35,335 nucleotides of DNA from Anaerolineae bacterium. GTDB taxonomy: Bacteria > Chloroflexota > Anaerolineae > Aggregatilineales > Phototrophicaceae. The notes under the pieces were generated by a model that made no database searches, had not been told where the DNA came from, and saw only the letters and a list, made by a program, of their open reading frames with translations. Numbering within the stretch: position 1 is the first letter of the stretch; every line of letters starts with the position of its first letter. Both the position numbers and the translations under genes were made by a program. Location: assembly GCA_025454495.1 (NCBI GenBank), contig JALOOI010000010.1, forward strand, positions 1 to 35,335, read 5' to 3'. Of this stretch, positions 28,246 through 31,638 are shown piece by piece.

Positions 28246-28686
28246 ATGAACTCATCCAGCGCCCTGGCTGCACTTTTAGGGCTGCAAACCCCGGAAGAAA
28301 TCTTTTATGAACTGAACCGCGAAGGTGATGCCTGTGATGTCATCGTGCGGCTGGACGATGGCAGCGTGTATACGGCGACCTTTGTGACCATGGATTATCT
28401 GCGCCGCCAGATGGATTTGTCGTTTCAGGTGATGTGCCAGATGCCGGATACGCCGCCGGTGCGTTATGCCGTCATTGATACGACGCATGTGGTGGTGGAA
28501 GCGCTGGAGCGCGACCTCATCGAAGATACCATTGATAACCTCATCAACCTGGATGTTTTTGAAAGCTACTTCATCCGCGTGACCGAAGACCCGGCCGGGG
28601 CGGCCCGAACTATGAACGATGGCCGACGGGCGACCCAGGAAGTGGCGGCGGTGGTCATTTCGGATGTGCTGGTGGTGCAGCAGTAA
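28246..28686 (+). CDS. Hypothetical protein, 146 residues
   Basis: No family was recognised. The protein is acidic and soluble, with alternating strand and helix patterns: EEIFYELNREGDACDVIVRLDDGSV, a middle with hydrophobic YAVIDTTHVVVEAL, then LIEDTIDNLINLDVFESYFIRV, and a hydrophobic C-terminus VAAVVISDVLVVQQ. There is no signal peptide, cysteine motif or obvious catalytic set. AAGGA lies about eight bases before the ATG, and a TATACT lies at 28205-28210. It is divergent from the Clp_N-only gene and followed by a strong hairpin, so it seems to be a single-gene unit. Confidence 0.75.
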   Translation: MNSSSALAALLGLQTPEEIFYELNREGDACDVIVRLDDGSVYTATFVTMDYLRRQMDLSFQVMCQMPDTPPVRYAVIDTTHVVVEALERDLIEDTIDNLINLDVFESYFIRVTEDPAGAARTMNDGRRATQEVAAVVISDVLVVQQ

Positions 28687-29024: not shown

Positions 29025-30872
29025 ATGTCTAACCATGACCGTGACCGTAACCATGACCATGACCATGACCAACCCTACGAAGCCACCCCGCTGTATCGCA
29101 TCCGGCATTCGCTGGCGCATGTGCTGGCCCAGGCGATGCTGGAACGCTTCCCGGAAGCGCATATCGCCATTGGCCCGCCCATCGAAGATGGCTTCTATTA
29201 CGATTTTGCCCTGCCCGCGTCCATCACCGAGGGCGACCTGGAGTGGGTGGAAAACCGCATGAAGCAAATTGTGAAGGGCCGCCATGCCTTCACCGTGCGC
29301 GACGTTACGCCGGGCGAAGCGCGGCAGCTTTTCGCCGGCCAGCCCTTTAAGCTGGAACTGATCGATGACCTGGTGAACGGCCGGGTGGACGACAACGGCA
29401 ACAAAATCGCTGCGCCGGCCGAAAAAATGACGCTGTACACCCAGGACACGTTTACCGATTTGTGCCGCGGGCCGCATGTGGCCACCACGCAGGACATCAA
29501 CCCGAAGGCCTTCAGCATTCGCGTGCGGCCGCCGGCCGGGGCCTACTGGCGCGGCGATGAGAAGCGCCCGCAGTTAACGCGCATCTATGGCACCGCCTGG
29601 GAAACGCCGGAACAGCTTCAGGCGTATATCCAGCGCCTGGAAGAAGCCCGCCGGCGCGATCATCGCCTGCTGGGCGAAAAGCTGGAACTGTTCATCATCA
29701 GCCCGCTGGTGGGCAAGGGGCTGCCGCTGTGGCTGCCGGATGGCGCAACCCTGCGCGATACGCTGGAGCGCTGGCTGCGCCAGGTGCAGATCGACAATGG
29801 CTATCTGCCGGTGGTCACACCGCACATCGGCAACCTGGACCTGTACCGCACCTCCGGCCACTATCCTTACTACAAAGACAGCCAGTACACGCCCATCCAG
29901 GTGGATGAGGAAGAATACCTGCTGAAGCCGATGAACTGCCCGCACCACATCATGATCTATAAAAACGGGCTGCACAGCTACCGCGACCTGCCCATGCGCC
30001 TGGCAGAATTTGGCACCGTGTACCGCTACGAACAATCCGGCGAGCTGAACGGCCTCACCCGTGTGCGCGGCTTCACGGTGGACGACGCGCACATCTTCGT
30101 CACGCCGGAGCAGCTTCTGGAAGAATTTAAGACCGTGGTGGAACTGGTGCGCTACGTCTTTAGCACCCTGGGCCTGAGCGATTTTCGCTGCCGCGTGGGG
30201 ATTCGTGACCCGCAGAGCAACAAATATGTGGGCGATGATGCCCTGTGGGAGAGCGCGACGGCGGCCATCATCACCGCGGTGAAAGACCTGGGCCTGCCCT
30301 ACAGCGTGGAAGAAGGCGAAGCCGCTTTCTACGGCCCCAAGCTGGATTTTATCGTGCGGGATGTGCTGAAACGCCAGTGGCAACTGGGCACGGTGCAGGT
30401 GGATTATAACCTGCCGCAGCGCTTTGAACTGGAATATGTCGATGCGGATAACCAGCGCAAACGCCCGATCATGATCCATCGTGCGCCCTTCGGCAGCATG
30501 GAGCGCTTCGTGGGCATTTTGATCGAACATTTTGCCGGCGAGTTCCCGGTGTGGCTGGCCCCCACCCAGGTGATGCTCATCCCCATTCGCCCGGAACACA
30601 ACGCCTACGCCGAACAGGTGACGGCCCACCTGCGGGCGGCCGGGCTGCGCGTGAAAGCCGACCTGCGCGATAAAAATATGCGTAACAAAATCAAGGAACA
30701 TCGGCAGAAATTCATCCCCTACCTGCTCATTGTGGGGGATAAAGACGTGGAAAACGGCACCGTCAGCGTGCGGCTGCGGACGGATGAAGACCATGGCGCA
30801 CTGTCGCTGGCGGATTTTACCGCCATGGCGCAGGGCCTCATCCGCAGCCACAGCCCGGCGCTGCTGGCCTGA
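29025..30872 (+). CDS. thrS: Threonyl-tRNA synthetase without TGS domain
   Basis: This 615-residue enzyme charges tRNA-Thr. It has the editing (SAD) domain at 25-165, with HSLAH (His28, His32) and DLCRGPH (Cys147, His151). The class II core follows at about 220-510, with zinc ligands Cys305 (MNCPHH), His356 (DDAHIF) and His485 (MIHRAP), then the anticodon-binding domain (about 515-610). The roughly 60-residue TGS domain that opens the E. coli enzyme is missing. Instead there are 20 residues rich in His and Asp (MSNHDRDRNHDHDHDQ), encoded by CATGAC-type hexamers. AGGA lies about ten bases before the ATG. TGS is absent in some natural ThrRS, so this form is probably active. Confidence 0.95.
   Translation: MSNHDRDRNHDHDHDQPYEATPLYRIRHSLAHVLAQAMLERFPEAHIAIGPPIEDGFYYDFALPASITEGDLEWVENRMKQIVKGRHAFTVRDVTPGEARQLFAGQPFKLELIDDLVNGRVDDNGNKIAAPAEKMTLYTQDTFTDLCRGPHVATTQDINPKAFSIRVRPPAGAYWRGDEKRPQLTRIYGTAWETPEQLQAYIQRLEEARRRDHRLLGEKLELFIISPLVGKGLPLWLPDGATLRDTLERWLRQVQIDNGYLPVVTPHIGNLDLYRTSGHYPYYKDSQYTPIQVDEEEYLLKPMNCPHHIMIYKNGLHSYRDLPMRLAEFGTVYRYEQSGELNGLTRVRGFTVDDAHIFVTPEQLLEEFKTVVELVRYVFSTLGLSDFRCRVGIRDPQSNKYVGDDALWESATAAIITAVKDLGLPYSVEEGEAAFYGPKLDFIVRDVLKRQWQLGTVQVDYNLPQRFELEYVDADNQRKRPIMIHRAPFGSMERFVGILIEHFAGEFPVWLAPTQVMLIPIRPEHNAYAEQVTAHLRAAGLRVKADLRDKNMRNKIKEHRQKFIPYLLIVGDKDVENGTVSVRLRTDEDHGALSLADFTAMAQGLIRSHSPALLA
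29039..29070 (+). repeat. Hexamer repeat (CATGAC-like) at the thrS start
   Basis: Five or six imperfect units of the form CATGAC/CGTGAC/CGTAAC encode His-Asp and Arg-Asp dipeptides at the ThrRS N-terminus. The last three units are identical, as expected for a slippage-prone microsatellite. Each change of one unit would add or remove two residues without a frameshift. Confidence 0.7.
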
Positions 30873-30938: not shown

Positions 30939-30979
30939 CAGGATGGGGATGGGCGGGGATAAGGATCACGGAGGATCGC

Positions 30980-31243
30980 ATGACCTGGCAGGAAATTCGA
31001 CAGCGATACCCGCAGCGCTGGCTGGTGCTGGAAGGATTTGAAGCGTACAGCGCCGGCGGGCACTGGGTCGTCCCCCGGCTGGAGGTGATCGCGGTGTTTG
31101 CCGACGACTGGAAACCTGCCTGGGAACATTACAAACAGCTTCATCACGCCGATCGCTTCCGTGATTATTATGTGCTGCACACCGCCCGCGAGGAACTGAA
31201 TATTGGTGTGCTGGATCAATTTGGGCGGGTTGTCACCGAATAA
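30980..31243 (+). CDS. 87-residue hypothetical protein coupled to a retropepsin-like gene
   Basis: This is a small soluble protein (MTWQEIRQRYPQRWLVLEGFEA, later VVPRLEVIAVFADDWKPAWEHYKQLH, and YYVLHTAREELNIGVLDQFG). No family name was recognised. It has an aromatic-rich alpha/beta pattern and no signal peptide, cysteine set or catalytic motif. GGAGG lies five bases before the ATG, an excellent ribosome site. The TAA stop shares its last A with the ATG of the aspartic protease gene (TAATG), so the two are tightly co-translated and probably work together, perhaps as partner or substrate binder and protease (inference). Confidence 0.8.
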   Translation: MTWQEIRQRYPQRWLVLEGFEAYSAGGHWVVPRLEVIAVFADDWKPAWEHYKQLHHADRFRDYYVLHTAREELNIGVLDQFGRVVTE

Positions 31244-31638
31244 TGGCCGCGTCTATCAGCATCTTTCAGGGGTTGCCCTGTATTGCTGTGACCATCACCC
31301 ACGCTGGAAAAAGCCTCACCCTGGAGCGCGTGCTGATTGATACAGGTGCTGCGGCCTGCGTTTTCAAAACCGATGATCTGGTTTATATGCATGAAACGGA
31401 TATTTTGCGTACCATGCGCGGTGTGGGAGGCATTGAACGGGTTATCCAAAAACAAATTGATCGCCTGGAGGCCGGTGGTTTGCAGGCAGCGCCCTTTACC
31501 ATTCAGATGGGGGCGATGGATTATGGTTTGCCGCTGGATGGTATTCTGGGGAGCGATTTTTGGCTGGCCACCCGTGCAGTGATCAATTTTGCGACGCGGA
31601 CACTTCAGTCGGACGGCATGGGCTATAATGAAGCCTGA
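31243..31638 (+). CDS. Retropepsin-like aspartic protease
   Basis: This 131-residue protein is the size of one retropepsin subunit. It shows ERVLIDTGAAACVF, with the catalytic DTGA at about residues 33-36, and LDGILGSDFWLATRAVINF, the hydrophobic-hydrophobic-Gly motif that completes the fold. Active retropepsins are homodimers with one Asp from each chain. No signal peptide or membrane segment is seen, so it acts in the cytosol. The bases look less GC-rich than those of neighbouring genes, with more A/T at third positions, which might reflect a different origin. It depends on the preceding gene for translation through the TAATG overlap. Confidence 0.85.
   Translation: MAASISIFQGLPCIAVTITHAGKSLTLERVLIDTGAAACVFKTDDLVYMHETDILRTMRGVGGIERVIQKQIDRLEAGGLQAAPFTIQMGAMDYGLPLDGILGSDFWLATRAVINFATRTLQSDGMGYNEA
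31624..31629 (+). promoter_or_regulatory. Possible -10 element for the secreted protein gene
   Basis: A perfect TATAAT lies within the end of the protease gene, 41 bases before the ATG at 31670. No -35 hexamer is convincing. Its position argues for the ATG at 31670 rather than earlier in-frame starts at 31589 and 31628. Confidence 0.35.

What the first reader, a model, noticed from the sequence alone, without database searches (positions are those of the whole stretch)
30980..31638. One-base-overlapping pair: unknown 87-residue protein and cytosolic retropepsin
The TAATG junction makes production of a small DTGA-type retropepsin dependent on translation of the upstream protein. Free-standing bacterial retropepsins are poorly understood. 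A fixed partner would suggest a regulated proteolysis pair. The protease gene also looks richer in A/T than its neighbours.
Basis: partly seen in the sequence, partly recalled or inferred. Interest (0 to 1): 0.55.

Follow-up and report, generated by a model that had tools for sequence, protein, structure and literature searches.

The report
Coupled retropepsin pair, candidate phage defence
Two overlapping bacterial genes encode a small protein of unknown function and an HIV-protease-like enzyme that travel together; the pair is already listed as a candidate anti-phage defence and may be a protease held in check by its own partner.

Summary
In detail: an 87-aa ORF (30980-31243) and a 131-aa DTG retropepsin ORF (31243-31638) overlap by one base (TAATG). 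In 278 genomes sampled from the window's class, all 34 strong protease matches sit directly behind the partner, whereas 17 of 46 intact partners have no intact protease beside them. So the protease was not seen alone, while the partner often is. Both genes are under purifying selection, co-inherited (Mantel r 0.81) and usually joined by a short overlap. The pair occurs in Chloroflexota, Proteobacteria, desulfobacteria and Bacillota, on a plasmid, on Clostridioides phages and on two IMG/VR contigs. Both proteins match PADLOC-DB models PDC-M08A and PDC-M08B, a catalogued candidate defence system; no paper naming PDC-M08 was found, and its source preprint could not be read. A single-chain AlphaFold2 model of partner plus protease from a relative gives pTM 0.81, suggesting a complex, without a negative control. 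Best reading: the partner, made first, binds and restrains a potentially harmful cytosolic retropepsin until a trigger such as infection, like a toxin-antitoxin pair. Identity is firm; the mechanism is inference (0.45).

The parts
30970..30974 (+). Shine-Dalgarno-like GGAGG, 5 bases before the partner's ATG
   Evidence: sequence
30980..31243 (+). partner, 87 aa, PDC-M08A family (no Pfam or NCBIfam family)
   Evidence: PADLOC PDC-M08A 3.4e-23; no Pfam or NCBIfam match at E up to 1; AlphaFold2 pLDDT 84.8, pTM 0.74
31241..31245 (+). TAATG stop-start overlap (one shared base)
   Evidence: coupling conserved in relatives
31243..31638 (+). retropepsin, 131 aa, PDC-M08B family; no signal peptide seen by eye
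   Evidence: PADLOC PDC-M08B 7.2e-34; PF13650 9.3e-5, 23.5 bits against a cut-off of 24.3
31339..31350 (+). catalytic DTGA codons
   Evidence: sequence; D-T-G invariant in 33 of 33 rows of A3 (rows had been picked for D[TSA]G)
31417..31431 (+). RGVGG, flap-like motif (flap assignment by analogy with retropepsins, recalled)
   Evidence: G60, G62, G63 invariant in 33 of 33 rows
31540..31551 (+). GILG, the second hydrophobic-hydrophobic-Gly motif of clan AA (motif name recalled)
   Evidence: I101 and G103 invariant in 33 of 33 rows

Best explanation
This is a member of PADLOC's two-gene candidate defence system PDC-M08: a small alpha/beta partner (M08A) made first and a cytosolic retropepsin (M08B) made by coupled re-initiation. 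Proposed mechanism: M08A binds M08B as it is made and keeps it inactive or confined (retropepsins need homodimers, so a partner could block the dimer or the active site). Phage infection or another disturbance lowers or occupies M08A, and the freed protease cuts host or phage proteins and stops phage growth, perhaps by abortive infection. Shown here: the pair, its conserved overlap, co-inheritance, selection on both genes, one-sided dependence, presence on mobile elements. Predicted: the retropepsin fold and a partner-protease complex. Inferred only: translational coupling, inhibition, trigger, target, anti-phage effect.
For: Family identity: PDC-M08A 3.4e-23 and PDC-M08B 7.2e-34. Protease not seen without partner: 34 of 34 strong matches adjacent; all 29 intact proteases beside an intact partner, while 17 of 46 intact partners lack an intact protease (one of the 17 at a contig end). 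In the 80 loci, 77 assessable: 48 proteases full by profile coverage (one of them, L103, with a frameshift near its start), 10 damaged, 19 absent or remnant. L029 against L028: same site, protease deleted, partner core kept, partner dN/dS 0.04. Solitary partners: dN/dS 0.04-0.21 in the 13 of 27 where dS could be estimated, as expected for an antidote kept on its own. Both genes constrained where intact (0.04-0.29). Mantel r 0.81 over 48 pairs, 0 of 2000 permutations as high. Single-chain model of L094: pTM 0.81, pLDDT 87.6, joining stretch 80-87 under 50. Pair on a Clostridioides phage, an Alicyclobacillus plasmid and two IMG/VR contigs. No fixed neighbour gene (at most 7 of 81 loci). Absent in 11 of 11 same-family genomes sampled.
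Against: No activity, toxicity, inhibition or phage-resistance data. The one-sided loss could also follow from coupling alone: a protease without its upstream gene may not be expressed and so decays. pTM is from a tethered chain with only 2 paired rows, no PAE and no mismatched control; two of five models were poor (mean pLDDT 73.1 and 65.4). The partner has no recognised inhibitor or DNA-binding fold. PADLOC's PDC label is itself a prediction. The defence-neighbour comparison counts families, not genes; some of the families are generic kinase or TPR models, and part of the test loci carry a damaged or missing protease. dN/dS values are pairwise and include time before protease loss.
Confidence: 0.45

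Rival explanations
1. The partner is an activator, adaptor or folding chaperone: it presents substrates to the retropepsin or helps it fold, and coupling ensures stoichiometry.
For: Same genetics predicted for the protease (not seen without partner); predicted complex; weak structural resemblance of the partner model to ClpS adaptors (Z 3.8), within background.
Against: 17 of 46 intact partners have no intact protease and solitary partners look constrained, which an obligate adaptor does not explain unless it serves another protease.
Confidence: 0.25
2. The partner is the protease's dedicated substrate or sensor: cleavage of the partner, for example at its variable C-terminal tail, is the signalling event.
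For: Fixed pairing; C-terminal tail of the partner is low-confidence in the model and variable.
Against: No conserved cleavage motif visible by eye in the tail; solitary partners look constrained.
Confidence: 0.12
3. The partner has an unrelated function and only supplies translation for a passenger protease; selection on coupling, not on a complex, keeps the order.
For: Conserved overlap; partner persists alone.
Against: Co-inheritance across several phyla and mobile elements and the single-chain pTM of 0.81 would then be coincidence.
Confidence: 0.13

Closest known systems
PDC-M08 (PADLOC-DB 2.0.0 candidate system; PMC12988326 credits the PDC set to Payne et al. 2024, bioRxiv 10.1101/2024.01.29.577857, which I saw only as a reference)
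   Same: Both proteins match its A and B models; adjacent, A first
   Different: The window copy is divergent: DTGA instead of the usual DTGS, a 4-residue deletion after the catalytic loop, TAATG instead of ATGA.
Toxin-antitoxin operons (works like)
   Same: Two small overlapping genes, partner first, toxin-like gene not seen alone, solitary partner kept, patchy and mobile
   Different: No toxicity or neutralisation shown; no known antitoxin fold; the effector would be an aspartic protease
RimB and RloA retropepsin-like proteases (PMC11957791: abstract, opening text and passages; PMC12239564: passages)
   Same: Bacterial retropepsin-like enzymes encoded in operons
   Different: RimB and RloA go with ATP-grasp proteins (RimK, RloC); RimA is a c-di-GMP phosphodiesterase; no recurring neighbour family was seen here
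APRc-type retropepsin of Rickettsia conorii (PDB 5c9b) and Ddi1 RVP domain (7d66)
   Same: Protease half of the L094 model aligns at Z 10.1 (rmsd 2.5, 112 residues) and Z 10.7 (rmsd 2.3, 98 residues)
   Different: 17-18% identity; whether they have any such partner was not examined
DUF5678-retropepsin neighbours
   Same: Small protein directly before a D[TS]G protease, often with the same ATGA overlap
   Different: Partner not detectably homologous (hhalign probability 24 over 20 columns); the one such protease tested scores only 0.001 to PDC-M08B

Membership tests
PDC-M08 candidate defence system | gene A matches PDC-M08A | tested here: met
   3.4e-23, residues 1-77 of 87
PDC-M08 candidate defence system | gene B matches PDC-M08B | tested here: met
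   7.2e-34, residues 4-122 of 131
PDC-M08 candidate defence system | A and B adjacent | tested here: met
PDC-M08 candidate defence system | protects against phage | not testable with these tools
   no experiment; no paper in the library names PDC-M08
clan AA retropepsins (MEROPS A2-like) | DTG/DSG plus hydrophobic-hydrophobic-Gly | tested here: met
   DTGA and GILG in the window
clan AA retropepsins (MEROPS A2-like) | retropepsin fold | tested here: met
   Foldseek HIV protease 4.2e-5; VIA Z 9.0-10.7; the model is of relative L094, not of the window's copy
clan AA retropepsins (MEROPS A2-like) | homodimeric active enzyme | not testable with these tools
   no dimer prediction or assay made
toxin-antitoxin system | toxin gene not found without antitoxin gene | tested here: met
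   34 of 34 strong matches adjacent; consistent with, not specific to, TA
toxin-antitoxin system | effector toxic and neutralised by partner | not testable with these tools
   no experiment
RimB family | matches the zinc-protease Pfam family of RimB/RloA (family named from PMC12239564 passages) | tested here: not met
   of 33 members none matched such a family at E up to 0.01; hits are PF13650 (33), PF13975 (32), PF00077 (9) and others
DUF5678 | partner homologous to DUF5678 | tested here: inconclusive
   no PF18929 match among 30 members; hhalign probability 24 over 20 columns

The most novel reading that the evidence does not exclude
A new class of toxin-antitoxin-like immunity in which the effector is a cytosolic retropepsin and the antidote is a small protein that binds it during coupled translation; solitary partners act as anti-addiction antidotes, and DUF5678-retropepsin pairs are a second, independently built version of the same design.
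Probability: 0.3. Interest if true: 0.78.

Novelty: new member of a known kind. Interest (0 to 1): 0.5.

Why it matters
Few bacterial retropepsins have a known job (stated in PMC12239564, passages). Here one comes with a constant partner, sits on phages and a plasmid, is prone to loss, and is listed as a defence candidate for which I found no published mechanism. If the partner is an inhibitor, this would put an HIV-protease-like enzyme into bacterial immunity and give a simple two-protein system in which to test it.

Tried and rejected
Partner as a DUF5678 member: no profile match. Fold of the partner: nothing in PDB better than Foldseek E 0.46 or Z 4.6, BFVD best E 0.092; ClpS-like and rubisco-small-subunit-like rows are background. 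Empty-site comparison: the downstream gene is found in only 1 of 15 relatives, so the flank gives no handle. The first mixed alignment for the fused model (A5) misplaced the protease rows; A6 and A7 were steps; A8 was folded. Species-tree comparison: not made. Per-gene defence counts: the tool lists families only.

Rows dropped before counts: L206 and L207 (copies of L204 and L205 in a close genome) from the neighbour test; control regions L242 and L243 fetched but not used; L081 and L063 from the co-inheritance test; 14 weak protease rows (E 2.3e-8 to 5.1e-5) left out of the 34. Of these 14, one (G573) lies beside a partner match, one (G445) beside a DUF5678 match, one (G535) beside a sub-threshold partner match (0.0058). 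L172 (IMG/VR) has a weaker protease match (8.8e-10) and no partner found. Priestia plasmid L166 has a partner but no protease match. L030 counts as intact by coverage but has a stop at codon 3. One search kept 80 of 124 relatives. Plasmid searches differ by query: the partner found Priestia and Alicyclobacillus, the protease found three C. difficile plasmids (listing only).

Full report
What is there. The window holds an 87-aa ORF (30980-31243) and a 131-aa ORF (31243-31638) on the + strand that share one base in TAATG. The first has GGAGG five bases before its ATG; by eye the second has no such site at normal spacing. Upstream lies a threonyl-tRNA synthetase gene (29025-30872, Pfam), downstream a gene from 31670. 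The own genome (4.74 Mb, 382 contigs) has one clear copy of each gene. Pfam and NCBIfam give no family for the partner; the protease scores just under the cut-off of PF13650.

Relatives. A search of 400 genomes of the phylum with single sequences showed other adjacent matches in G372 (two copies), G367 and G318; one G372 copy has an in-frame stop and the G318 protease lacks its N-terminal part. A scan of the 84,980-species collection with an alignment of five partners gave 124 relatives, of which 80 were kept; by record title these are Chloroflexi, Gammaproteobacteria (Thiomargarita, Methylococcaceae, Chromatiaceae), desulfobacteria, Acidobacteria, Bacillaceae, Paenibacillus, Clostridium and a few others. 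Behind the partner, on the same strand, 49 of the 80 loci and the window carry an ORF of at least 105 aa with D[TSA]G; offsets are given in the observation check. A count on the 80 loci by profile gives 48 full proteases (coverage from position 13 or lower to 115 or higher; L103 among them has a frameshift after codon 12), 10 damaged, 19 absent or only a remnant and 3 cut by a contig end; the partner is covered in all 80 by the same kind of test, although L030 has a stop at codon 3. The 80 were found through the partner, so this count alone is biased. In some 'absent' loci the first protease codons are still readable, for example L031, L041, L065.

The reverse test. The same 278 genomes of the window's class were searched with the protease alignment A3 and the partner alignment A2. 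Comparing coordinates by hand: 34 protease matches at E below 1e-11, all 34 next to a partner match (in G590 only a C-terminal fragment, at the distance expected); 29 are intact, each beside an intact partner. Of 54 partner matches 46 are intact (profile position 5 or lower to 75 or higher, no stop); 29 have an intact protease, 17 do not, one of these (G484) at a contig end; other contig ends were not checked one by one. Fourteen weaker protease matches look like other retropepsins and were left out (see Tried and rejected). None of the 11 same-family genomes sampled has either gene.

Evolution. Pairwise dN/dS in close relatives is 0.04-0.22 for partners and 0.05-0.29 for intact proteases where dS can be estimated; the pair with a frameshifted protease (L088/L081) gives 0.40 for the protease. 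Partner and protease distances correlate over 48 pairs, the window included (Mantel r 0.813, 0 of 2000 permutations as high; 0.78 after leaving out close pairs). L027, L028 and L029 share several surrounding ORFs; between L028 and L029, flanks 91.5% and 94.0% identical enclose a deletion that removes the protease and the last nine or so partner codons. Solitary or protease-damaged partners show 0.04-0.21 against their nearest relative in 13 of 27 cases, dS being saturated in the rest. No neighbour family recurs in more than 7 of 81 loci.

Mobility. The pair stands on Alicyclobacillus plasmid p1 beside a tyrosine-type recombinase gene, annotated as hypothetical protein and retropepsin-like aspartic protease, and on Clostridioides difficile phage phiCDIF1296T as hypothetical protein and a protein with Asp_protease_2, about 3.5 kb from a Doc-like gene. 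The partner and protease searches of the phage collection returned the same three Clostridioides phage records, with neighbouring coordinates in each. IMG/VR gave one contig with the partner query and three with the protease query; two of these contigs carry both genes (L169/L170 and L171), L172 a weaker protease alone. The Priestia plasmid has a partner only.

Known name. PADLOC-DB lists both proteins: window partner PDC-M08A 3.4e-23, window protease PDC-M08B 7.2e-34; L036 8.8e-39 and 2.6e-47; the phage copy 7.9e-28 and 6e-48. In PHROGs the phage genes are phrog_21859 (unknown) and phrog_21241 (protease). NCBIfam TIGR02281 (clan_AA_DTGA) matches 29 of 33 proteases at E up to 0.01, not the window's. 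PDC systems are described in PMC12988326 and PMC10855318 (passages read) as putative candidates from a guilt-by-embedding approach, most without validation; the source is cited as Payne et al. 2024, bioRxiv, not held and not read. A full-text search for PDC-M08 found no paper; searches for retropepsin with operon, toxin-antitoxin, defence or abortive-infection terms listed none that by title concerns this pair (listings).

Neighbours. For 18 loci in unnamed class genomes (pairs, and some with a damaged or missing protease), the up to 7 nearest ORFs each (113) were scanned with PADLOC at E up to 1e-10: 133 families match; the 25 shown include PtuA (3.5e-165), type II REase (3.1e-88), type II MTase (1.3e-50), PDC-S70 (2 ORFs) and AriA (2 ORFs), but also generic kinase and TPR models. 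In 18 arbitrarily chosen regions of some of the same genomes (124 ORFs) 6 families match: three RtcR models, mad3, C3a156, PDC-S60. One ORF can match many models; by eye the PtuA-like and kinase-like ORFs both lie in one locus (L220), whose protease is damaged; and four control regions come from G422, whose ORFs look fragmented. This is suggestive, not a measured enrichment. In G469 (L214) an ORF with a TSPPY methyltransferase motif lies near the pair and a MutL-like ORF follows it (by eye). Pfam scans of both sets (top 25 families shown) showed nothing specific.

Structure. The partner model has a helix (3-9), strands 14-20 and 33-40, helix 44-57, strand 62-67 and a loose tail (pLDDT 84.8, pTM 0.74). 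Foldseek and VIA-align found no convincing match. To ask about a complex, relative L094, where partner and protease are in frame and separated by TAA, was modelled as one chain with the stop read as glycine, using 29 rows of which only 2 span both halves. Result: pLDDT 87.6, pTM 0.81, joining stretch 80-87 below 50. Two well-folded domains with no fixed relation should give a clearly lower pTM (my estimate), so a defined arrangement is predicted. No PAE, coordinates or mismatched control were available, and two of five models were much less confident. The protease half matches HIV protease (Foldseek 4.2e-5), Ddi1 and a Rickettsia retropepsin (Z 10.7 and 10.1).

A second design. In 120 class genomes DUF5678 (PF18929) matches in 44; the window's genome has none. 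Of 30 fetched DUF5678 loci I count 16 with a D[TS]G or (often weakly) A3-matching ORF directly behind on the same strand (L173, L175-L178, L180-L182, L184, L185, L188, L189, L192, L194, L195, L197), several with the same ATGA overlap (the count is by eye). The two partner families are not detectably related.

Conclusion. The thing is a PDC-M08 pair: identity about 0.95. That the partner binds the protease is likely; that it restrains it, in a defence or addiction role, is the reading that best fits the one-sided dependence and the solitary, constrained partners, but coupling alone could also explain why the protease is not found alone.

Noticed in passing
L173, L175-L178, L180-L182, L184, L185, L188, L189, L192, L194, L195, L197: DUF5678 proteins directly before a D[TS]G or weakly matching retropepsin of another subfamily, several with ATGA overlap: 16 of 30 loci by eye. 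The one paper naming DUF5678 is by its title on another subject (listing).
   Followed up: partly
L174, L179, L193, L198, L200: A DUF5678 match lies at the N-terminus of a long ORF that looks like a tRNA nucleotidyltransferase/poly(A) polymerase (by eye).
   Followed up: no
L214:6747-7374 and neighbours: A pair lies near a methyltransferase-like ORF (TSPPY motif) and directly before a MutL-like ORF (by eye).
   Followed up: no
L032 and L218 (apparently the same locus), behind the partner: Where the protease would be, an ORF resembling DUF3800 (by recall) follows the partner.
   Followed up: no
L063:461-1012: A protease ORF in one frame with about 58 extra residues in the middle, as if an in-frame insertion had entered.
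   Followed up: no
L036, L060, L079, L017: BrnT-like ORFs lie within a few kb of the pair in these 4 loci (by eye).
   Followed up: no
window 28246-28686: An ORF of 146 aa with no Pfam family above cut-off and lower GC3 (0.680) than most neighbours.
   Followed up: no
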